From assembly GCF_910592395.1 (NCBI RefSeq), contig NC_088315.1, forward strand, positions 2,296,501 to 2,360,500: DNA of 64,000 nt, given 5' to 3'. The notes under the pieces were generated by a model. That model ran no database searches. It worked only from the letters and a program-made list of their open reading frames with translations, and was not told where the DNA came from. This stretch comes from Lineus longissimus. Taxonomy: Eukaryota; Nemertea; Pilidiophora; Heteronemertea; Lineidae. Below are positions 19,395 through 64,000 of this stretch, piece by piece (the first letter of the stretch is position 1; each line of letters opens with the position of its first letter). The translations under genes were made by a program, and so were the position numbers.

Positions 19395-21458
19395 ATGACA
19401 GAGAATAGGATGCTGCGCGGTGGTTCAGCACTATCACAATGCCATACCTGTGACGCTGATTGTGCGGACGGAGACACTCCCAATGATTTGCGGCACCGAG
19501 ACTCAGCCCAGGGAATACCAGGTGCAAACCCACAGAACAGCTGCACCGAATTGAGGCGGATGTCGACCAGCCTGAACTTTTTCAAATTGTACTCAACTGA
19601 GGCTGTCGGGAATTCAAGGCGGCGTTTAAGTGTTGGAAATATCAACAATCAATATGTCAGTCTCCAGCTTGATGATGAGCTAATCATAATTATTTGTATT
19701 GAACTTGTGGCACAATGTCAAGATGATGACTTATTACCGATTCGCATGGTGTTTAGGAAAACGGCGCCATATACTGGTACCATTCGGTCTGCAGCTGTTG
19801 ACCCAGAGGGCTTTGACTATTACATTTATTATGACGGAAAGAACCTGACAACCAGGGCCATAGGATTTGACAGAACTGATAAAGGATGTAAGTAAGATAT
19901 TTTGTTGCTTCGTCTGGGTTTCCTCCATCCTGAACTTCAGGGCTTTTCACTCGGCACTTATGATTGAGCCCATGTCAGTCACGTGTGCAAGGGGAGGAGC
20001 ATTATACGACTGAACCTGGAATTCGAGGATGGATGGGAATCCTCTAAACTCTCGCTGTCGCTGTCACAATTAACCGAAGTGGGCGGCCAGCCAGATGTTA
20101 CATCATTTGCCATCAAGTGGTTTTAATACTCGGCCTCTCGATATTTCAAACTTTTGTAGGAATAAAAAAAAGAATCTCAGAATGACCATTTGCTGGCTCT
20201 GACAACGATCGGTTTAATTCCATGCGTGAGTATCCCTAGGAAACCAGGGGCTGATTTTCGCTCCTCAGGCTCATTCCAATTTCATACCGGTAAATCTAAT
20301 ATGCATATTTCAGTTTATTTCACGTTGGAGATTTACATTGGCAACACATGGCTACACTGTGACCAGACCGTTCTCGTCGGGATAATCAAGCCTTTCAAAC
20401 AGTCGGACAGCGGAGAAGACATGGTTATATCTGCTGATTCTGAAATTGTAAAAGCCGTGGTAAGTATACAACAAACTGATGGTGTGTTATAGTGATGAGG
20501 TCAGAGCCACCTCCCGCAGAGTCAGGTATTTTTATTTCCGTTCGCTCAGACAGTTACTCTGGATTTGATAAATATGCAGCCATGCTTCATTTTTTAACGG
20601 ATTTACCATTGTTATTTGCCATTTCAGAGTTATTCAACGAGTGGCATAGAAGAGTTGCTTAACGGCGGAGTCATCCCTAAAGAGGACCCTAACCCTTGCT
20701 TCTTCATCTGTAAGAAAATTGGAAAGGGACCCGTGCATGACATTCTTTTAATGTCATGTGATCCTCTAGGTGAGAATTTCTGTCATGACCCCCTCCCCCT
20801 CTCCCCTAACAGGTTTCGTTGACAGCTGGCGCCGGTGTAATGGTTATTGAGTCCCTCAGAAAATGTGTCTTTTATGGTCTGATCGGGGTATCCCGGCTGC
20901 ATGCCGACTAACTGGCAGTGAATGTCAACCTTTCACATGGACGCGTGGAAAAGGAAGGGGATGCAGGGAGACTACCGAAGTAACAGCCTTTCTGACGGCC
21001 GATCAGGGGGAGTTTATCGGCGGTGAAGGATGGATATACGCACAACGACGGTAGATCGGCATGCCCTGCATGCTCGGCTCATCAAATTTGAATGCTGTCC
21101 GCAACTGGAGTATAAATTCATGCATTCCTTGAACTATAATTGTATAATTCAAATTGAGGAGCCTTACATTTCAAAACATGCGGCACGTCACTAATTCCAT
21201 CATGTTGCATTTTCAGGTCGGTATCTAGGGGTTGACAATGACGGACACCTGAAGGTGCTGGAACCCCAAACTGATCAACCAGAAGCGGACTACAGGTTGC
21301 ATTTAATGTTTAAAGAGTCACTATCTTGTTCACACTGTTTCCTCTACGACAAGACAGCCGACGTCCTCCCAGTTGCCCCAGTAACTAACTGTATACACGC
21401 TATACAAGGGCTCAAGAGTATTCCAACGCCTGGTCTCGGTCTGAAGATGTTCTCATGA
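19395..21458 (+). CDS. Beta-trefoil, IL-1/FGF-like protein A (leaderless cytokine candidate; 4 coding exons, 340 aa)
   Basis: Coding exons: 19395-19887 (exon starts at 19380 after CAG), 20314-20459, 20628-20769, 21217-21458; non-coding exon about 18742-18803. No signal peptide or membrane segment is seen. The head (1-100) is Ser/Asp-rich and looks like a pro-region. The C-terminal ~200 residues have an alternating strand pattern: DYYIYYDGKNL, then FYFTLEIYIG, VLVGIIKP, PNPCFFICKKIGKG (Phe238), and RYLGVDNDGHLKV (262-274) followed by DYRLHLMF. This order resembles IL-1 (FxFxK...PxWYxxxxxxxxxL...FxMxF) and the related FGF fold. Gene B (23795-26875) is a paralogue with the same last three intron positions and phases 1-0-1. 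The fold call is inference from pattern; sequence identity to any named cytokine is low. FGF-like or another trefoil family is the main alternative. Confidence 0.7.
21023..21063. repeat. Short dispersed repeat, copy 2
   Basis: This is the second copy of the ~42-bp segment at 19275-19317, in the last intron of gene A. The surrounding sequence differs. Confidence 0.7.
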
Positions 21459-21755
21459 GTATAATTCCGTCCAATACGTAATGCGGGTCCGGCGAAAAAA
21501 CCTACACAGGATTCTATGTAACTTTTTTCGTGTCGTACGGCAATATTGTGTCCAACTATACTGTTAGATGAGACACATTAGTACCCAGCATGCACCGCGC
21601 TGGCGGAGGTTTTGACCGATTCAAAGAGTAGGCAGTTTTATAAAACATGTAATGTTACACAGTGTATGCCTTTTATCATTATTGGCAATATATGTTGGCT
21701 ATATAGCCATCCAAGGTTTTGTCACGACTGTAAATATTGTAATATAGAGGAGCCA

Positions 21756-21769
21756 AATAAACCAATAAA
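21756..21769 (+). promoter_or_regulatory. Polyadenylation signal of gene A
   Basis: Two AATAAA hexamers (21756-21761 and 21764-21769) lie about 300 bp after the stop codon of trefoil gene A, which fits a short 3' UTR. Confidence 0.65.
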
Positions 21770-21977
21770 ACTAATATTAGCCATATACATTTATGTATAG
21801 TTCTGTATTAATAATTGCTTTCCAACTAATTTTCATTGGTACTGATAGTGCCAATATTCTCCCATACTGAACTTCGAGCGGTATATCCTCCGTAGCCTCC
21901 GCCCATGCATTGGGGGACGCACCATTGTATTCTCTCTCTGTCACTGTCCTTTTGGACCTCTGTGCGAAAAACGGTGT

Positions 21978-22117
21978 ATTCCTGTTTCGCCTATTCCTGT
22001 TCCGCCTATTCCTGTTCCGCCTATTCCTGTTTCGCCTAATTCCTTATTCGCCTATTCCTGATTCGCCTAATTCCTGTTTCGCCTAATTCCTCTTTCGCGG
22101 CCTATTCCTGTTTCGCC
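21978..22117 (+). repeat. 15-bp minisatellite array, left member of an inverted pair
   Basis: About nine units of TTCCTGTTTCGCCTA with small variants (TTCCGCC, TTATTCGCC, CTCTTTCGCGG). The reverse-complement array is at 22805-22923. It lies in the DNA between the convergent trefoil genes. Confidence 0.95.
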
Positions 22118-22804
22118 AATACAAATGTATTGCTAACCTCCCCACAGACGTATAGGAATATGAACCGTCCCTTACTGTATAGTCGAAGAGCAAGATTTAT
22201 ATGTGGTTCATATTGATAGTACGTGGATATGTACTGTCCTAAAGAATTCACTAATTCGAATGATAATCCTTAAGTTTTATTCTATTTGTCATTGTACTAT
22301 GCCCTTTGGTGCGACAATAATTAGTCTGATGAATGACGATATCGTCATAAGCTGCACGTGAAATCATATATCATGATATGTATTTTCAACCTTGTTTGAC
22401 TTGATATGTGCTGTACCTACATGTATATCATGACATGGGTTTTACAACTGATTTTGATCAAATAATTATGAGAATGTACAGTATTATGTATTTTTGTCAA
22501 AAACTCACGAATTCCTGTTTTTATAAAATAAACGACTGCTTTACTGTACTTAATCTATAGTCTTTACTGTGTGTCAGTATGGTCATATGGTCAAATAAGT
22601 CCCGGACTGTCCCCGGTTTCAAGGTGACTCTTTCAAAACGGTCATGGCATGGTTTGTTAACAAAGTTGATGGCATTTGATTAGTCAAATTGTCATCACAT
22701 CGTTAACATCATCCAATTGTCCCCTCACATTTTCCCCATAAAATGGACATGCATCCCTAAGGTTCTCCGTGGGAGAGTCGACTTATTGTAGGGGTACTGG
22801 AAAG

Positions 22805-22923
22805 TAGGCGAAACAGGAAGTAGGCGAAACAGGAATAGGCCAAACAGGAAATAGGCCAAACAGGAATAGGCGAAACAGGAATAGGCGGAACAGGAATAGG
22901 CGAAACAGAAATAGGCGAAACAT
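22805..22923 (-). repeat. 15-bp minisatellite array, right member of an inverted pair
   Basis: About eight units of TAGGCGAAACAGGAA, the exact reverse complement of the unit at 21978-22117. The minus-strand reading frame of PIPVSPIPV-type repeats here is a by-product of the array. Confidence 0.95.
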
Positions 22924-23126
22924 GCATAAACCCGAAAAACAACCTTGTGAGTTTATTGATAGACAGGGATTACCTCTTTAATTGCTCGGCTACACAAAAT
23001 TGCCGAATTATTACACTGACTAATAATGGTCATACCCTAGCCTCAAGCTGGATGACAAGACGGCAAATAAAGTAGGGGCCTGACAGGCAGGACATGCTAT
23101 TCCAAAGAAACATTCAATAACTGTGC

Positions 23127-23271
23127 ATTGTACTCGCCGGTCACCGATCCAAAGGTTGACCGCGCTCAACGTTGCTTAACTTCCACTCTGGGGCCAACGC
23201 ACCAACCACTGGGCCATAAAGGAATTCCCTCATGGCCGGCGGGCTAAGCCGTGCCATATACCTGGGGGTAC
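23127..23271 (-). repeat. 5S-rRNA-derived element, copy 1
   Basis: On the minus strand it reads GAAGTTAAGCAACGTTGAGC and then TTTGGATCGGTGACCGGCGA. These correspond to the 5S rRNA internal control region: A box, intermediate element and C box. The 5S 5' half is replaced by other sequence with a tRNA-like GGCCCAGTGGTTGGTGCG. It is not an intact 5S gene; a 5S-derived SINE is the likely origin. Confidence 0.75.
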
Positions 23272-23388
23272 ATCATTCCCCCCTTCGGACAGAGATGGAT
23301 CGTCCTCGATCCTACTAAGCGCTTCATGCGTCTCATTACCGAACTACAAATCCAGAGCTCGCATCGCGTGGGAAGGTCTGCCAGATGT

Positions 23389-23533
23389 ATTGTACTCGCC
23401 GGTCACCGATCCAAAGGTTGACCGCGCTCAACGTTGCTTAACTTCCACTCTGGGGCCAACGCGCCAACCACTGGGCCATAAAGGAATTCCCTCATGGCCG
23501 GCGGGTTAAGCCGTGCCATATACCTGGGGGTAC
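23389..23533 (-). repeat. 5S-rRNA-derived element, copy 2
   Basis: Nearly identical to 23127-23271 (two or three substitutions over 145 bp), in the same direction, 262 bp further on. The 117-bp spacer between copies is not repeated after copy 2. It lies just downstream of trefoil gene B. Confidence 0.8.
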
Positions 23534-23794
23534 TATACAAACTGTATAAAGCGACAATTTCTGATGGCAGTATAAATTCATCTCGAGCAAGTCCGAGAAT
23601 CCAAAACTGTATGATTATATCACGTATCCACTGTTCAATGGCCACACTTAACACTTTAACACAAGTCTTTACCAAAGGTAGAGGCAGTGACGTTATATCA
23701 ATTGAACTCAACCCTGCCCTACAAAAAGTATCTTGGTATGTTTCTAGTTGCAGTTCAAAATGTCTCCAGTAGTCCGAGATTTCCAGCTCTACTC

Positions 23795-26700
23795 TCACAC
23801 ATTCGTCTCGTGAACTATTTCCAACATCCGGTTCTGAATCAACTGAGCCCGCAGAAGCCGCTTGAAGTGGAGACGTCTATCATTTGTGTAGTGGTCAGCT
23901 GGTCGGATAGTCTTAAGTGTACCATCTTCATCAATGCCAAGAAACAGCGCTGAAATGTTAGAAAGATTGAATGTTACAGCACAATGTGGAGTATTACAGG
24001 GGTGCTTCTCAGACGAAACGTGATTATGACGGCATATGAAACACGCTGGCGACTTTGTGGGAAATGTGTCGGTAGCGTGTCAGGATGGAGACGGGAAGCC
24101 GGTGGATCATCTGAATACACTTACATTTGTCTTTCGTCGTCTGAAGAACAATCGAGCCACCCTCGACACGTTTCAGGAAGAACATTCCAGGATCTGGTTG
24201 GTGGATCACCTTGTGGTCTTCGTCTATGTTTTGTTCCGTGGCATTGCCGTCCTAAAAGGAGAAGGCTTATGGTTACCCCTGCATTTTGATTGATTTCCGC
24301 GGTTCATGCGGCTACATGTGTCTGCCCAGAAGTTGTGAGGCACTCATTATCTGATCCGGGCTTGTCGCTCATAAGACAGTTATATGACTCCTTGAATAAT
24401 TGAATGGAAATCTTTTTACCGTGAAGGAGGCCAATGAAGTCCTCTCGTAATGCTCCACATTATCATGTAACTGTTAACACTATACATTGTGGTTCTTAGA
24501 GCGAATCCATCTTAAACAAAATGGGTTCAGATATATATGGCTTGAGGCAAACTGGTACCCGTGTCTCGCGACCAGTGTCAAGTTGGTGTGATGCGAAAAC
24601 CAGACAATGGAATCTTTGTAGTCAATAACAGCATTCAGTTTCAGCAGCATCTGTTCAAGAGTCTATTGTTTCTCTGCCCATTCTCCTCTTAAAAACTTAC
24701 TCTGATATCGACAACTGTTCGCTCTGCAGCAATCACTTTCTCGTTGTCCTCTTCATTGAACGGGAGTTTGATGACCAAAGGGTTCACGCTGTCACCACTT
24801 TGCAAACTGCTCACATGACTCCCTTTTCCCGTGTAGATGCCGTTGTAGATGTACATTGGGAACATGTCTGAAAGCAAGACGAAGTATGCCAGCTTAAATT
24901 TGTTGGTAGATGTTCACAAGTGACGAATGGAACTAGCAAGGCTTCCCAAGAAAATGATGAATTGGCAACCGGAGGGTGTTGGAGGCAAACTACGAAGGGG
25001 GCGATAACGAACTCGCTAGAAGAATGTTCGTTATTTGCACTAGGTGTTGACACAGACGGCTCACGACCGTGCCTGGAGGGATGATAGAAATGACAAGTTG
25101 CAGAGGTGTGAAAGAGTGTGAGTGGTACACGTATCTACAAAACGGGAGGTAACATCTTCAGGCCTATTCGCCAACCAGACCCTTGAACAACCAACAAACT
25201 ATACATGTATGTACCGCTAATAGCTCCAACCTTTAACAGGAGTGAAAAGTGACGATGGTTACCTTCTTATTCGCGGAGGTCGCAGAAAGTTACTTAATCA
25301 CTCAGCAAGAACTTCTATGTACTTACATCCCATTAATTCATCCTCGACCTTCAGGTAACCTCGAACTTTGATGCTGTCTCCATTGTCGCTGAAGATATAA
25401 TAGCTCTGCCCATCTTTCGTATATGCTGGCCTCATGATTACGACTCTGTCTGACGTCAGCAGCCTAACACATTCGACGATGTGGCCATCGTCATCTGTTT
25501 CAGCATTTGCGCATTTTCCCTGACTTTCTCTTACGTAGATATCAGCAAGTGTTCCTGAAGAGGGATAAACAGTTACCTTGGTCCAGCAAGGAGATGAAAA
25601 AGATCATTAGACTTACAGTGTATTTCAAGAACAGGATGGCATCACATGGGATAACAGTTCTTGGTAATATCTTGGCAAATTTCGAGTGTTTGGTTAACCT
25701 TTGAGTTATCACTGATGACGTCTATTACGAGGGTCATCAAATACCTGGTTGGTCATACTCTCAAGGTGTAAGCCACACAAAAAACACCCTGATTTGCGGA
25801 ATAGATGATCGAAGATCAAGAGTCGAGGCTTGAAACCTTTGTCGAAACGTACCAGTTCCATCAGACTTGAATTGCACGAAATAATAGACGCCTTCCTCAT
25901 TCTCGCAAATTTCATGGAATTTCTACAAATGAAAGAAAGACATTTGATTGAAAGATCATATAGCAAAAACCTGATCTCAGGATGCATCCAAGACATCTTG
26001 ATCAGAAATCTCGGCAATTTATTAGTGACCACAAAGCCCCGCAAATGCAGCAAATAATGACGATAAACCGTAGCCTTTTTGAGTTAGAAGGTAAACTTAC
26101 GAAGTTAGCGCTAGATCCCCGGTTTTCCATCCGCTCTCTACATTCTTCAAGCTTCTCAGCCAACGTATTACCATCCATTTCATAAGTCGGGGTTCCAGAG
26201 ATTTCTTCGAAGAGGAATCCGATCCTGAAGAAGAGGGAAGAGAGAGATTGGGTCATAACTCCATCACCAGACTGTTGGTAGGTCTTGACTACACTTCGGA
26301 CGCAGCTGGACCATGCAGCCTCGTCCTATCGCCCGGTATTGAGGAAAGATGATCAGGATGATGAAATGGACTGCATATAGGAGCCTAGTCCTGGTCTGTA
26401 CCATACAGCGGCATTGACATTCATGTGAAATAAGGGGCTCCATCCTCCTGGGATTGGCTGGTGGTTGGCAAGCTTTGTAAGGGAGGTTGACGAGGCAACA
26501 CACGGAGGGAAACCGTATTGTGGAAGTGTTCTGGAGCCAGGACGTTGATGACAAAAAGACACAAATCGACCTCTGGACCTACCTTGCATGAAGTTTATCC
26601 ATGTTGCTGTTGGGGATGACATTGGTTATAACATGGTAGAAGAAAAATGGCTCAACTGGATGAAACTGGTGATTCGGGTCCGGCACAAGAAGTTGGCAGC

Positions 26701-26875
26701 TTCTGATACTCGCTCCCCAATAAGAGCCACGATCCCCCCCTTGGATCAACTGGGGGCCAAAGTGCCCGGCAATGTTCTCCTTTGGCGCAGGGATAACCTC
26801 AATCTCCAACGACGACTCCTCAGTCGAGTTCATGGAGTAATAACCGCTCTCGTTGAGGCCTTCTGGGGCAGACAT
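23795..26875 (-). CDS. Beta-trefoil, IL-1/FGF-like protein B (leaderless cytokine candidate; 7 coding exons, 387 aa)
   Basis: Exons, 5' to 3': 26875-26583, 26224-26101, 25922-25853, 25554-25327, 24867-24701, 24251-24125, 23949-23795. It has no signal peptide. Residues 1-97 form a polar head (MSAPEGLNESGYYSMN...), followed by EEISGTPTYEMD and a short charged helix (AEKLEECRERMENR). The C-terminal half parallels protein A: QSYYIFSDNGDSIKV, MFPMYIYNG, NPLVIKLPF, PGMFFLKRVEGG (317 onward), and SLFLGIDEDGTLKTI (337 onward) followed by RRLHFKRLL. The last three introns match those of gene A in place and phase, which is strong evidence of common descent. The start is the first in-frame ATG, although the frame is open a little further upstream. 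The IL-1-like call is inference; an FGF-like or orphan trefoil identity is possible. Confidence 0.7.
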
Positions 26876-29527: not shown

Positions 29528-32500
29528 TCAGTTTATCACATACTGTTGTTTGAGTGGGGGTAAGGACACTGCTGTTCTTGTCTCGGATCTGGGTGTAATA
29601 ACTGAGAACCTGCTCTGCATTGACCGCCCGGTTCTGATCCGACGATGTAAGGGTGTGGTGTTCGGAAGTCCATGGTAGGTGGTGTGGTGATCTGGGAGGC
29701 TGACATGCCCGAGGAAGAACGGGTTGCCCTTGACCTTCTTTGAGATAGCGCGAATAAGATCGCGGGAATGCTTGAGACTGTAGGCTGCAACGGAAGCCAG
29801 AAAATTTCAATGAAATTAGGCAGAAAATGGTAAAATTTATCAAAAATAAAACTGTAACAAATGGTATTTTCAAAAACTACTTATTTTGAGTTTTCCAAGA
29901 AATGGTCAGATAAATACATTCTCAGAATTCTTAAATTTTCAAATATCTGTGTCCAGGACTTGGTAACGAAGAGTTTTTGTTGGCTATCCATAGTCTTGTG
30001 GCTTCATCTCCCCTTCAATTATAGGTCGTGACATCATTCAATTACGTAAATGTGGCTTGTATTAGCTATTACCTTTTAGTCTCGCCTTGATTTCCTCTGA
30101 GAAATAACCACACTCAATCCACTCATCAAAGTCCAGAATACAGTCAAATGCTGTCAGACCTGCAATAGGATGTGAAGAAATAAACCAATTACTGATCACA
30201 ACTAGGAGCTAGGAGTTATCAGACAACAGCGTTACAGATGTTTTCATGGTTCCTGAGGTGGTCATTACCACAGCCCAAGAAGAAGAATGGTAACTCAGTT
30301 CTAGGTGTAGTACTATTTCTGTTGCTTGGAAGTCCTAGTCCTGCATGTAAAACGCCAATCACCCTACCATTAGGTCTACACTACTTTAATGACTTCATCG
30401 CGACGATTCCCAAACAAAACAAAAACCTGAATATACACTTTTACCTTGAACATTCTTACAGCGAACATTTGCTCCATAGTCGATGAGAATATTCGCAGCG
30501 AACTGATTGTTGCACTGTGTTGCAAAGAACAGCGGTGTACATTGGTCATCGTTAATGTCATCAATGTCTGCTCCATATTCAATGAGGAGTTCTAGGACAT
30601 CTGTGGAACCAACCATGCTAGCAGCATAGTGAAGTGCACTGAAATATAAGCAGCGTTGTAGGCTTATCTGCAGACAAAACACCGATTTCAGGCTATAATA
30701 GCATACATCATGACGTACTTGACCCATATACCAGTCCATTGAAGTGAAACCAAATACAGGTCAGTGAAAGGCCTTCCCCACATTTAGGAGCCAGTTGAAA
30801 TACAGCAAAGAACTTACGTATTTCCTCCCACATATCTTGGGCTAGGGTTGGCGCCGTGATCAAGGAGAAAGCGCACAACATCTGTCCTCCTCTTGCTAAA
30901 AATGGAAAGGGGAGAATATCACGAACTTGACCTTGACTTCAAATTGTGTCATTGTGCTCAATTGGTTTCATCATATGCATCAGACCATTGGTATAGCTTC
31001 TATCAAAGCTTTCTCTGTACCATTTTTTGGTGATTTTGTATGAATCATACTTTATCTGAATTTTCTTCAACAATAGCTCAAGTATTTTGATACTTACACT
31101 TTGATCTGCTCCGTGAGGATCCTCTGTAGAAGAATGTCTTGTTCACTATCCTTGAAGTTGATGTCATTGTCAAGCAACCTGGAAAGGATGAGCAATTAGT
31201 CAAGAATATGGACAATTAGCTTTTGTATGGTACTCAGGCTGGTACAAAGTGGACAAAAATCCACTATATCTCCATCATGACTACCTATGAGCATGGCATC
31301 AACACCTTCACCTTTACCAAAAACGCATATGGCGAGCAGCTCGCCTATCAATTCCTGCTTTTACCTACCATGTTGCACAGTCCAAGAAGTCATTGGCAAT
31401 GGCCAGATGCACAAGACTAGGTGGCGTACTGAGTTTCTCCTCCTCTAACGCTGCCTTGATTTTTCCATCAGTGTCGTGGTGAACGAGCAGTTTTATGACA
31501 TCATCGCGACCTTGCATGGCGGCACAATGGATCGGCATCAACGACTGAAAAGTACAAAGTTTGAAAACTTCAAATTCAGGGAAACAATCACATTGGTCCA
31601 CCCTGTGTATCATGGCTCTCTAAGACGGCAACCACCAGAAAATGGAAGTAGAGAGCCAGAAGGTATCTAGAATCTTTGAATTCTATCAAGGAACAACTCT
31701 GGTAATATTGTAACACAAAATGAAGTAAAAATACTTGGTTTTAGTTGTAGTCAATCTGGAATGAATGACGGATCTGAGAATACATATATGTCCCTCCATT
31801 ACATACCCTATGATTTCTAGCAGTAATGTTTGCCTTGTTCTCAAGAAGTAACTTGATGCATTCCGTCTCTGAAGATTTGTCCATTTCGCCGTAGCATTTC
31901 ACATGTAGAGGCATGTTTCCCTCGTGGTCTTCCGAGTTCACTAGGCCACCTGCATCAAGGAGAAGCTGAAAGGACATAGAAAGTGAAGTTGAGTTCATTA
32001 CGGTCTATTCTGAGAGAGCTTTAGATTTAAATCATGACTACACCGACATTGACATGAATTCGTTGGCCACTGGTAACAACCTTGAAGGGAAGAAAGCTGA
32101 AGGCTGATGTCTCCAGATTGAAAAATGTCATATTCTCACCTTTATAGTCTCAACATCCTTGGCCCTATGAAGAGGGGTGGCACCCTTGTAATCCTGTAAG
32201 TTCACATCAACTCTCAACTGCAACAGATCTTCAACGACTTTCACAGCGCCAAAATAAGCAGAAGTATGCAATAGCGTTGATCCATTTACGCATCTGCTTC
32301 TCAAATTGGAGAACTCTTGGACTCCCAAGACGTGGTCACGGACTAGCTTGGCTAATAACTCTGTGTCACCTTCCATAACCTTTGGTACCACTTGAGTGTA
32401 GTGCTCATAAACGCCTTAAATAAAAAGACAAAATGTACTGGTTACCTTTAGCAAAGGAAATAGCAGATTAGGTAATGTACCTGACCATTTCATTCTGGAA

Positions 32501-35500
32501 ACAGCAGACTGGGTAATGTACCTGACCATTTCATTCTGGAAACACCAGACTGGGTAATGTACCTGACCATTTCATTCTGGAAACACCAGACTGGGTAATG
32601 TAGCTGACAATTTCGATCTGGTGATTTAGGAGGAAATGATAAACAATAAACTTAGCAAATATATCAACTTTACTGCATAAACCATTAAGTGGAGTTTACG
32701 GCCAATTGGTTTGTATTACTGTACATAATACTTACTGGTGAGATGATGTCGAAATTCATCATTTTTGATGGCCTCCAATGGTGCGGTCCCCCGAATACTT
32801 TTGATGTGGACGTCACAGCCCCATTCTATGAGAAGCTGGAAGAAAGAGTCATCAAATCTTTGCTCAAATTGAATAAAACATACATGTAAGAGCTTATTCC
32901 TATTACTTTCTAGTGTTCCAAATGAAGCATAAATGTTCAGCTGGAGATAGGCTTTTTCCATGCAAATGGTTTTAGGAGAAATTTAAGTTCCTATATAGTG
33001 CTTTTATACTGTACAGTGACACCAGAGCACCCTATACTCACATGAGCAACACTTCTCTGCATACCTTCAATGGCAGAGAAAAGTGGTGTGTAACGGAAGT
33101 TGTTTTTTGCATCGACCTGCGCACCATTTTCTAGCAGGAACTGGACAATGTGCTGCAATAATGAAGAATATGTCTAGTCCTAGTAGGAAGTAACAGATAT
33201 GGGGGCTATTTTTGCATGTAAAGTACATTGGAAAAAAAGTTATGCCACTTCATAAACAGATTGCTTGGCTTAATGGTTAAGGTTGTCAGCCTCGAGACCC
33301 AGAGGTAGAAGTTTGAGACACAATGGTTCCAAACATCTCCTTTCAATAGGAATGACACAATAATAAACCCAAAGTTTCAGTAAGGAAATCCCACTTACAT
33401 AATGTCCCATCCTAGCTGCCCAATGCAGAGCAGTGTTTCCCGATGGGTGTTCACGGCAATTGATGAAAGACGCATTCGTTCGAAAGAACACAACAAGTTT
33501 CTGCACCGATTCAAACTCGTTGTCACGCGCTGCTCTGATGAACAGACGTTGCCATGTAAACATGTTGCCAGGGAATACTTGGTAGAGGAACTCCGTGCCA
33601 GACTTGAGGGATTTGTTCCTGGATGCGGCCTCGACATATATCTGAGAAAGTAAACAATAGAATGACATGCAGTCTGCTCAGTCAAAATCAGTCGCATATG
33701 GAAGAAAACATATCATTTTAATGGTAATTTTGTGCACAGTCAACTCATGGAAATAGCCCAAAGTCTGTCTTTGATCCAAAAGGCCTATTATTGACAGATC
33801 ACATATCTATGAAATACATGTAAAACATCCAATCATTATTTATATAGCCATACGTACATCATATTGTGGATAGTTTTCAGCATTCAACTCAACTACATCG
33901 TAGGCTGGAAGACGTAGTAAGCGTCGGATAGGCTCTTTGTTCTTTGCCGTAAAATCATCGATGAATTCACCACTGGCTTTGTGCCTGAGGATGATTCTCC
34001 TGGCATCACTAACTTGCTCCTTTTGTGTGACGTGGTAGAATCCAGAACCATTTGTTAAACTCTGAAAGAAGGCAAGACATTTTGTACAATTTGAACGGAG
34101 AGATTAAATGGTAAGGAGTAGATCAGTGGTGGCGGCATTCGTTTCACAATCCAAGAGGTATAAAGTTTGAAACTTGGCCTGTTGGAGTGGTGCAATGGAG
34201 ACATCAGCACCTGTCACCTCTGAGGTCTCGGGTTCGATTCCCTAATGTGCAATGCTTGTTTTAGGGATAAACCTTTTTCCAGTCTGAAAAAACGGTACAC
34301 TCCAGTATGGCTAGACTACCCTGCACTACCCTGCATCTCTTTACAGAGACACAATTGAAACTCAATCCAGTTAAAAGGTCAGAACGTGGAGACATACCAG
34401 GTTGATGACCATGGAGAGACAGATATCATTGATGGTGATATTCCGTGGAACTTTCAGGATATCAAACTTTTCCTTGATTTTCTCCCGAATTAACTTGTGA
34501 GTCTCTTTCTGTACAACGACAATATGGCTCATCCAGTCCTGACAGAACCGGATGTCAAACTTCTTCTCCAGTTCCAGTATGCCTGAAATATGATTAACTT
34601 ATCGTAAGTAAGTTGGTTTATTATAGTATAAGCCCAAATAGACGGGCCAGACAGATTTGACTACTGAGACACTCTTTACTCCAAAACTACTATCTCTAAT
34701 GCCAGAGACCTGGCGAAAAGGCAGTTTCAACAGACATAGTGCATTGCAATACATTACAGTGCATACCAACAATCACAGGCAAGGACAATGTTCCATAGCA
34801 AACTGGATAAATGTTATGCAAAGATTCAATAATCCTATTGTCCTATGTCTACAATGTCACTGATACGATCCACATGGTTGAAGGAACTGATTCAATGGGG
34901 ATTACATACCATCTCTGTATTCATCTTTGAGTTGGTCTAGCTCCTTTTTGCGTTTTAGGTGACTCGGCTGAGATTCTAGATCTAAATGGTCCAGTTCATG
35001 GTTAGCTTCACGGTCCAGCCGATTCAGCCAATCCTGTACAAGTAGAGATGAAATATTGAAAGAAAACAGTATAAATTCTCAACAAAATGGCTATCCACTC
35101 AATGCCCAAGTGTTTTGCAGTTGCCACAGACCTGGCCAATGACTTGAGGTAAACTGGATCCGAACGCATATCGTAAGCCATAATATTACTCTATTACTGA
35201 CATTATGAAGACATACAAACTTACATATCTGTCAACCACCGCCCTGCTCTGCCTGTACTTGTAGCCGACCATAAAGAAGAAACAAAAGTAAGCACACACA
35301 GACATGGGATCGGCCTCGACGAGATCCTCCGAATCAAATGGGTTGTCGGCATACATCATCTTCTCAAAGGCTCGTAAAACTAGATTGATGGTCCACCTGG
35401 GGTAATAAAAGGAACGGTGTAATGCCCATTCAAATATGCTATGAGGTGCCATTGAGGAAGAGGAATGAATTGGGACAGAACCACGTATGACAAGCACTGA

Positions 35501-47049: not shown

Positions 47050-55903
<8,854 letters not shown>

Positions 55904-61598: not shown

Positions 61599-64000
61599 TC
61601 TTCATTTCATTTGTAAATAGGCATCGACTATTATTTTTGTTACATTCAATGGACCCAGTCCTACAATCTCTGGAAGAGCCAAGTCTGCACATAATTACTG
61701 GTATGCAGATTTGCCCGCGAGGCAGAACAGACCTGAACATTGCCACTGCTTTAGGAGTGTAGCAACGATATTGCTTCAAAGCAAGAAATGAATCTGCACA
61801 TATTTACTGGTATGCAGATAAGCCAGCAAGGCATCAAAACCTTCGTAAGCCCTTAATGAGCAACTAATTTATAAAATTACAAACAGGATTTATCTTGCAA
61901 CTGTACTGCTCCAAAAAAAAGAGCTAAGTCTGCACATAATTACTGGTATGCAGAAATGTCATCGAGGCAGGCAAGACCTAAACACTGCCACTGCTTCACA
62001 AGCGTAGCAGCGATATTGCTTCAAAGCAAAACTTAAGTCTGCACATAATTACTGGTATGCAGATGTGCCAGTGTTCGACAAAAAGACCCTGAACACTACT
62101 GAGCAACACTAATTTACAATTGACATGAAAGAGTATACAGTTTGAGGGAAAGCCACATAACTATCAGGTATTTTCCCTCTGGACTGGTGACAATCGGACT
62201 GGCCCGAAACTCTCATTATCGACCACTCCTCAGCGGAAATGAATCCAACAAAAAATGGGGTCATTGTATACAGTGGTACTGTATTACCCCGATGAGAAGC
62301 ACTTTACTGATGTCCCCCACTCTCAGCTAAGATATTTGTGCGCGTACCGGTTTGTCTACGGGCTGAAGTTGACGATGTACTCCTGACGGAGCCATTGGGT
62401 GCTTCGCCCGCTCATTGACCGAGGCATGGTGACCTGGAGACAGTGACCGGATTAGCACTAGCTGGTCGAAGGACACTTCACAGGGCGTCAATTCGCAACT
62501 TCTCATCATTTTTAAGGCACGACCCATTCACGTGGACCAAGTTTTACCCACAAACCTACTCCTTACATAGCGTGGGGTACCAACCCACCGCAGATTCAGG
62601 AGTGTGCAATGGTTTATGAATATCCTACACCCAATTGTGCTGCCCATTCGCAATAGGTTTAACCACCGTCATGAACCCCTGACATTGCCATCTCTCAGAC
62701 AGTAACAGGCAATGGTGCAATCAGGCTGCAAATTTTTCCCAGAGGGGCGGGATAATGATTATTTCAGACCGATCAGAGTGTCACAAGTTCAGAGCAAAAT
62801 CACCCGACAGTTACATGGAGTTGCATCAAAATGCAGACTCTTCATTTCATTTGTAAATAGGCATCGACTATTATTTTTGTTACATTCAATGGACCCAGTC
62901 CTACAATCTCTGGAAGAGTCAAGTCTGCACATAATTACTCGTATGCAGATTTGCCCGCAAGGCAGAACAGACCTGAACATTGCCACTGCTTTAGGAGTGT
63001 AGCAACGATATTGCTTCAAAGCAAGAAATGAATCTGCACATATTTACTGGTATGCAGATAAGCCAGCAAGGCATCAAAACCTTCGTAAGCCCTTAATGAG
63101 CAACTAATTCATAAAATTACAAACAGGATTTATCTTGTAACTGTACTGCTCCAAAAAAAGAGCCAAGTCTGCACATAATTACTGGTATGCAGAAATGTCA
63201 TCGAGGCAGGCAAGACCTGAACACTGCCACTGCTTCACAAGCGTAGCAGTGATATTGCTTCAAAGCAAAACTTAAGTCTGCACATAATTACTGGTATGCA
63301 GATGTGCCAGTGTTCGACAAAAAGACCCTGAACACTACTGAGCAACACTAATTTACAATTGACATGAAAGAGTATACAGTTTGAGGGAAAGCCACATAAC
63401 TATCAGGTATTTTCCCTCTGGACTGGTGACAATCAGACTGGCCCGAAACTCTCATTATCGACCACTCCTCAGCGGAAATGAATCCAACAAAAAATGGGGT
63501 CATTGTATACAGTGGTACTGTATTACCCCGATGAGAAGCACTTTACTGATGTCCCCCACTCTCAGCTAAGATATTTGTGCGCGTACCGGTTTGTCTACGG
63601 GCTGAAGTTGACGATGTACTCCTGACGGAGCCATTGGGTGCTTCGCCCGCTCATTGACCGAGGCATGGTGACCTGGAGACAGTGACCGGATTAGCACTAG
63701 CTGGTCGAAGGACACTTCACAGGGCGTCAATTCGCAACTTCTCATCATTTTTAAGGCACGACCCATTCACGTGGACCAAGTTTTACCCACAAACCTACTC
63801 CTTACATAGCGTGGGGTACCAACCCACCGCAGATTCAGGAGTGTGCAATGGTTTATGAATATCCTACACCCAATTGTGCTGCCCATTCGCAATAGGTTTA
63901 ACCACCGTCATGAACCCCTGACATTGCCATCTCTCAGACAGTAACAGGCAATGGTGCAATCAGGCTGCAAATTTTTCCCAGAGGGGCGGGATAATGATTA
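61599..64000. repeat. 1.24-kb tandem repeat array, at least two units, continuing past the window
   Basis: Copy 1 runs 61599-62838; copy 2 starts at 62839 and is cut by the window end after 1162 bp. The offset is a constant 1240-1239 bp, with only a handful of differences. Each unit has four copies of a 26-bp imperfect palindrome (TCTGCACATAATTACTGGTA then TGCAGA) at 61684, 61793, 61929 and 62038. Flanking subrepeats share GATATTGCTTCAAAGCAA. Duplicated short ORFs (62142-62330, 63381-63569 and others) have no recognisable domain and are judged chance frames. Confidence 0.93.

What the first reader, a model, noticed from the sequence alone, without database searches (positions are those of the whole stretch)
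19395..26875. Pair of leaderless IL-1/FGF-like beta-trefoil proteins in an invertebrate
Two convergent genes encode proteins of 340 and 387 aa that lack signal peptides. Their C-terminal strand pattern looks like interleukin-1: a YYIY/YYIF strand, FTLEIYIG or MYIYNG, a Pro-x-FF strand, about 20 residues to a (R/S)xxLG(V/I)DxDGxLK strand, and a final aromatic/aliphatic strand. I recall the IL-1 family as described mainly from vertebrates, so an invertebrate pair would matter for the origin of inflammatory cytokines. Seen: the ORFs, splice frames and shared motifs. Inferred: the fold and function.
Basis: partly seen in the sequence, partly recalled or inferred. Interest (0 to 1): 0.88.

Follow-up and report, generated by a model that had tools for sequence, protein, structure and literature searches.

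The report
Leaderless cytokine-like protein pair in ribbonworm
A marine ribbon worm carries two neighbouring, related genes for proteins without an export signal whose third repeat resembles the beta-trefoil growth factors and whose gene layout matches both FGF and interleukin-1 genes, so they may be distant relatives of these signalling proteins, but which family they belong to is not settled.

Summary
The two genes are real: spliced proteins of 340 and 387 aa, convergent, all 9 introns GT-AG, no signal-peptide-like core. They are paralogues (BLASTP E 6e-9) sharing three introns. The genome is almost certainly the nemertean Lineus longissimus, chromosome 8. A profile of their third repeat finds designed FGF1-type beta-trefoils in the PDB (E 1.1e-5; 47 of 51 hits are FGF1 or such designs); the reversed profile finds none. 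Introns of phase 1 before strand 4 and phase 0 after strand 7 match vertebrate IL-1beta and this worm's own FGF, not its fascin domain 3. The longer gene's phases 2,0,1,1,0 equal the IL-1beta order, plus one extra. IL-1 membership is not shown: no IL-1 profile or solved structure matches, and sequence leans to FGF1- and fascin-type trefoils. These tests lack power, since human IL-33 also escapes the Pfam IL1 profile. Best reading: leaderless cytokine-type trefoil proteins of the FGF/IL-1 kind, exact family open.

The parts
19395..19887 (+). Gene A exon 1: start codon, N-terminal piece and putative trefoil repeat 1; ends in a phase 1 intron
   Evidence: upstream in-frame stop 14 codons away
20314..20459 (+). 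Gene A exon 2: putative trefoil strands 4 to 7 (FYFTLEIYIG ... SEIVKAV); phase 1 in, phase 0 out
   Evidence: strands placed by eye
20628..20769 (+). Gene A exon 3: putative strands 8-9 (PCFFICKKIG ... DILLMSCDPL); phase 0 in, phase 1 out
   Evidence: strands placed by eye
21217..21458 (+). Gene A exon 4: putative strands 10-12 (RYLGVDNDGHLK ... RLHLMF), C-terminal tail and stop
26583..26875 (-). Gene B exon 1: start codon and N-terminal piece; phase 2 intron after it
   Evidence: upstream in-frame stop 38 codons away
26101..26224 (-). Gene B exon 2: N-terminal piece; phase 0 intron after it
25853..25922 (-). Gene B exon 3: N-terminal piece; phase 1 intron after it
25327..25554 (-). Gene B exon 4: putative trefoil repeat 1 (SYYIFSDNGDSIKVRGYLKVE); phase 1 intron after it
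   Evidence: strands placed by eye
24701..24867 (-). Gene B exon 5: putative strands 4 to 7 (MFPMYIYNG ... ERTVVDIR); phase 0 intron after it
   Evidence: strands placed by eye
24125..24251 (-). Gene B exon 6: putative strands 8-9 (PGMFFLKRVEGGSIVLQTTKDK); phase 1 intron after it
23795..23949 (-). Gene B exon 7: putative strands 10-12 (LFLGIDEDGTLK ... RRLHFKRL) and stop

Best explanation
A and B are diverged duplicate genes for leaderless proteins with a C-terminal beta-trefoil of the cytokine type (the FGF/IL-1 kind) behind a long N-terminal piece (about 160 residues in B). Most likely mechanism: the precursor stays in the cytosol, leaves by an unconventional route or on cell damage, perhaps after trimming of the N-terminal piece, and the trefoil binds an Ig-domain receptor. 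Shown: the gene models, their kinship, the lack of a signal-peptide core, the trefoil-like third repeat, the intron layout. Inferred: the complete 12-strand fold, release, receptor, any immune role. The IL-1 and FGF readings below are narrower versions of this one, not additions to it.
For: Third-repeat profile against the PDB: best E 1.1e-5; of 51 distinct sequences, 47 are FGF1 entries (33) or designed trefoils of FGF1 type (14). B's third repeat alone gives E 1.7e-5; the A+B domain profile gives E 0.0075 for designed trefoils, 10 of 17 hits. The reversed profile has 1 hit, tau, E 2.1. Introns of phase 1 at the start of putative strand 4 and phase 0 after strand 7 occur in A and B, in the worm's FGF on C9 and in vertebrate IL-1beta (phases II,0,I,I,0; trefoil in the last three exons; PMC4880838, passages; exact residues from recalled human exon lengths). 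The worm's fascin domain 3 differs: phase 1 about 15 residues before that strand, phase 2 after strand 7. No signal-peptide core. Caspase-domain matches exist in the genome (26, some with stops inside).
Confidence: 0.6

Rival explanations
1. They are true IL-1 superfamily ligands (a narrower form of the best explanation): the precursor is cut or released at damage and the trefoil signals through Ig/TIR receptors of the IL-1R type, which would place the IL-1 kind before the vertebrates.
Against: No IL-1 hit in Pfam, PDB profiles or the genome with PF00340 and PF15095 (no control genome rang). A aligns to IL-18 elsewhere, Z -0.9. Z against the IL-1 profile is 1.4 (A) and 0.1 (B). The recalled IL-1 signature is absent from both (present in 5 of 11 IL-1 proteins). 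The intron pair is shared with FGF. PMC5861070 argues that IL-18 and IL-33 arose separately from IL-1beta (passages).
Confidence: 0.25
2. They are very diverged FGF-family members (also a narrower form of the best explanation; FGF1, FGF2 and FGF11-14 are leaderless too, recalled) that have lost the receptor and heparin motifs.
For: Third-repeat trefoil matches are FGF1-type throughout (47 of 51 hits); 2 of the 33 FGF1 entries (1nzk, 1m16) have their best stretch at residues 85-124, in the third repeat. The intron pair matches the worm's own FGF.
Against: Most of the FGF1 entries match through repeat 1 or 2, many over about 20 residues. PF00167 recognises exons on C9 and C6 but not A or B. The recalled FGF signature, present in 9 of 9 FGFs, is absent from A and B. 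A and B have an extra phase 1 intron in repeat 3 that the C9 FGF last exon lacks. Z against FGF is 0.1 (A) and 1.4 (B).
Confidence: 0.2
3. They are cytosolic trefoil proteins of the fascin/FRG1/hisactophilin kind, working inside the cell, for example on actin.
Against: For B, STI (hhalign) and CBM13 (shuffles) score higher, and reversed B scores the same Z as B. PF06268 finds the worm's fascin locus (5 matches on C1) but not A or B. The fascin domain 3 introns differ in place and phase. A single trefoil after a long N-terminal piece is not the four-trefoil fascin plan (recalled).
Confidence: 0.12
4. The domain is not a trefoil but another fold, perhaps membrane-bound in A; the matches reflect a common hairpin motif (aromatic-L-G-x-D-x-D-G).
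For: Only one hairpin region carries the matches; A alone finds a beta-propeller lectin first; A has a hydrophobic stretch near residue 95.
Against: The reversed profile finds no trefoil; the intron layout fits trefoil repeat boundaries.
Confidence: 0.15

Closest known systems
Vertebrate IL-1 superfamily (IL-1beta, IL-18, IL-33)
   Same: Leaderless precursor with N-terminal piece; intron phases 2,0,1,1,0 in B; phase 1 / phase 0 introns around repeat 2; by eye, an FF strand followed in A by S-x-x-P and a (Y)(L) strand, partly like the FES-PG-WF motif of PMC12108812 (passages)
   Different: No detectable profile similarity; signature absent; an extra phase 1 intron inside repeat 3; found in a nemertean
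Fibroblast growth factors (FGF1/FGF2 type)
   Same: Third-repeat sequence (YL-x-x-D-x-DG-x-L hairpin); the intron pair, also seen in the worm's own FGF
   Different: FGF signature absent; not recognised by PF00167; extra intron in repeat 3; long N-terminal piece
Fascin / FRG1 / hisactophilin trefoils
   Same: Leaderless; (R)YL-x-x-D-x-DG-like motif; best weak profile scores for A
   Different: Intron places and phases differ from the worm's fascin domain 3; not recognised by PF06268; apparently one trefoil per protein

Membership tests
IL-1 superfamily | Profile match to Pfam IL1 (PF00340) or IL33_bt (PF15095) | tested here: not met
   power is low: IL-33 misses PF00340
IL-1 superfamily | IL-1 signature pattern (recalled PS00253) | tested here: not met
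   absent in A and B; present in only 5 of 11 recalled human IL-1 proteins
IL-1 superfamily | 12-strand beta-trefoil | tested here: inconclusive
IL-1 superfamily | Leaderless precursor with N-terminal piece | tested here: met
   (hydropathy only)
IL-1 superfamily | IL-1beta coding intron phases II,0,I,I,0 | tested here: met
   gene B 2,0,1,1,0 plus an extra 1; gene A has only 1,0 plus 1
IL-1 superfamily | Signals through an Ig/TIR receptor | not tested
   TIR family search of the genome did not complete
FGF | Profile match to PF00167 | tested here: not met
   (3 matches elsewhere in the genome, none in A or B)
FGF | FGF signature pattern (recalled PS00247) | tested here: not met
   9 of 9 recalled FGFs, neither A nor B
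FGF | Phase 1 / phase 0 intron pair around repeat 2 | tested here: met
   (worm FGF on C9)
FGF | FGF receptor / heparin binding | not testable with these tools
   needs protein
Fascin | Profile match to PF06268 | tested here: not met
Fascin | Introns placed as in the worm's fascin domain 3 | tested here: not met

The most novel reading that the evidence does not exclude
A protostome pair of leaderless IL-1-type cytokines that keeps the ancestral gene layout shared by FGF and IL-1 and the IL-1 order of intron phases, showing that the IL-1 kind arose from an FGF/IL-1 trefoil ancestor before vertebrates and that earlier searches missed it because the sequences diverge beyond profile recognition.
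Probability: 0.22. Interest if true: 0.92.

Novelty: new variant of a known kind. Interest (0 to 1): 0.6.

Why it matters
PMC9020223 (passages) states that no IL-1 gene orthologues were found outside vertebrates, although IL-1-like activities and IL-1R-like genes are described in invertebrates; PMC9382457 (passages) says IL1 is missing in invertebrates and jawless vertebrates. A leaderless trefoil-like pair with IL-1/FGF gene layout in a protostome is a concrete candidate for a missing ligand, or else an unrecorded arm of FGF-like trefoils. Either way intron positions become a usable marker where sequence fails.

Tried and rejected

More paralogues: in 200 kb of flanks only chance-level hits (best flank tblastn E 0.73; best flank hmmsearch E 0.33 among 7024 ORFs of at least 25 aa from flanks and window). 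Whole genome: B gives 7 matches, all its own exons, and A gives 4, all its own; the two do not find each other at this setting, so distant paralogues could be missed. Viral contigs: 89 pattern stretches, none a relative.

Intron coincidence as proof of IL-1: rejected as specific, since the worm's FGF has the same pair. The chance estimates (0.001 for two trefoil introns; 0.005-0.009 for the phase order) rest on assumed phase frequencies and on strand placement by eye.

Literature: listings, capped at 3 to 20 papers each out of up to 11,577. No listed title or abstract start names an invertebrate IL-1 gene; one (PMC11106378) concerns cytokine-like proteins in a moth and was not opened. Passages only were read of PMC9020223, PMC12108812, PMC9382457, PMC5861070, PMC4880838, PMC8593623 and PMC12225799.
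Full report
Where. The window lies in a 391,118,348-base genome of 30 contigs, contig C8 2296501-2360500. C8 is 20,961,375 bases long. The published Lineus longissimus assembly is 391 Mb in 32 scaffolds, with chromosome 8 of 20.96 Mb (PMC8593623, passages). Other lengths seen are C6 21,663,950 (paper 21.66), C9 20,542,500 (paper 20.55) and C1 29,440,000 (paper 29.45): 2 of 4 agree to 0.01 Mb and 2 are off by 0.01. The species is therefore inferred, with high confidence; the phylum would be Nemertea.

What. Gene A (+): exons 19395-19887, 20314-20459, 20628-20769, 21217-21458; 340 aa. Gene B (-): exons 26875-26583, 26224-26101, 25922-25853, 25554-25327, 24867-24701, 24251-24125, 23949-23795; 387 aa. 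All 9 introns are GT-AG (168-459 bases). No transcript data were available. A and B align at 28% identity over 175 aa, E 6e-9. The three introns of A correspond to introns of B: before FYFTLEIYIG / YMFPMYIYNG (phase 1), after SEIVKAV / ERTVVDIR (phase 0; 2 columns apart in the alignment, exact if its gap is moved) and before RYLGVD / LFLGID (phase 1). This supports both gene models. A also has a strongly hydrophobic stretch near residues 95-106, unexplained: a strand or a membrane segment.

Fold. Evidence for a trefoil is by sequence. phmmer of B against the PDB gives one hit, a designed trefoil, E 0.036; A gives none. The A+B domain profile gives 17 hits up to E 10: 10 FGF1-type designed trefoils (best E 0.0075) and 7 ribosomal S10 sequences. 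The third-repeat profile gives 51: 14 FGF1-type designs (best E 1.1e-5), 33 entries named FGF1 (from E 0.028; many are engineered variants, recalled), and 4 others: a fatty acid synthase DH entry, two transthyretin-like proteins and a designed protein, Cake2 (that the designs derive from FGF1 is recalled). B's repeat alone reaches 1.7e-5, its 12 hits also including parvalbumin, oncomodulin and M7r1 at E 0.89 or worse; A's alone finds no trefoil among 3 hits. Controls: reversed profile, 1 hit, tau, E 2.1. The IL-18/IL-33 third-repeat profile has 31 hits: 21 are IL-18 or IL-33, the rest an anti-sigma factor (E 1.5e-8) and ribosomal proteins; no FGF and no IL-1beta.

Introns. Vertebrate IL-1beta has coding phases II,0,I,I,0 with the trefoil in the last three exons (PMC4880838, passages). 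Gene B has 2,0,1,1,0,1 and gene A 1,0,1. With exon lengths recalled for human IL1B the last two introns fall at QQVV|F SMSFVQ (phase 1) and LQLESV|DPKN (phase 0), by eye the same strand positions as in A and B. The worm's own FGF gene on C9 (found by PF00167) has a middle exon of 110 bases, phase 1 before IVQFIGLA and phase 0 after GILYGH, and no intron in its third repeat; the second FGF on C6 also starts its last exon in phase 0 if the CAG acceptor seen is used. The upstream exon of the C9 gene was not found, so whether FGF also has a phase 1 intron before repeat 1 is unknown. The worm's fascin domain 3 has a phase 1 intron about 15 residues before the corresponding strand and a phase 2 intron after strand 7. 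Hence the intron pair ties A and B to the FGF/IL-1 kind rather than to fascin, and only the fuller order in B points to IL-1.

Uniqueness. In the 391-Mb genome the degenerate pattern for [YF][LF]G[VIM]DxDGx[LF] matches twice, once in each gene; the backwards control once. PF00340 and PF15095 find nothing, and no control genome rang for either, so this does not show absence.

Conclusion. A genuine, diverged, leaderless pair, most likely cytokine-type trefoils (0.6). IL-1 membership is possible (0.25, within that 0.6) but not shown.

Noticed in passing
23124-23271 and 23386-23533: Two 98% identical 148-base copies; from recall they look like a 5S-rRNA-derived SINE, but Rfam found no match at gathering threshold.
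   Followed up: partly
21977-22088 and 22802-22913: Inverted repeat of 112 bases, 91% complementary, rich in CCTATTCCTGTTTCG units, lying between the two genes.
   Followed up: no
19677-19712 (gene A exon 1, residues 95-106): Strongly hydrophobic stretch ELIIIICIELVA (12-residue mean hydropathy 2.63), which could be a strand or a membrane segment.
   Followed up: no
32456-32619: 41-base tandem repeat.
   Followed up: no
30395-33677 (-): Ankyrin-repeat exons (Pfam Ank families).
   Followed up: partly
47050-47259 (+): F-BAR (FCH) coding stretch, E 2e-13; looks like a PACSIN/syndapin gene (name recalled).
   Followed up: partly
61599-63452: Near-identical (98-99%) direct repeats of 300 bases at the window end.
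   Followed up: no
L024, L025 (C9:2357755-2357864 and 2366395-2366613): The worm's FGF gene shares the phase 1 / phase 0 intron pair around repeat 2 with vertebrate IL-1beta, hinting at a common FGF/IL-1 gene layout.
   Followed up: partly
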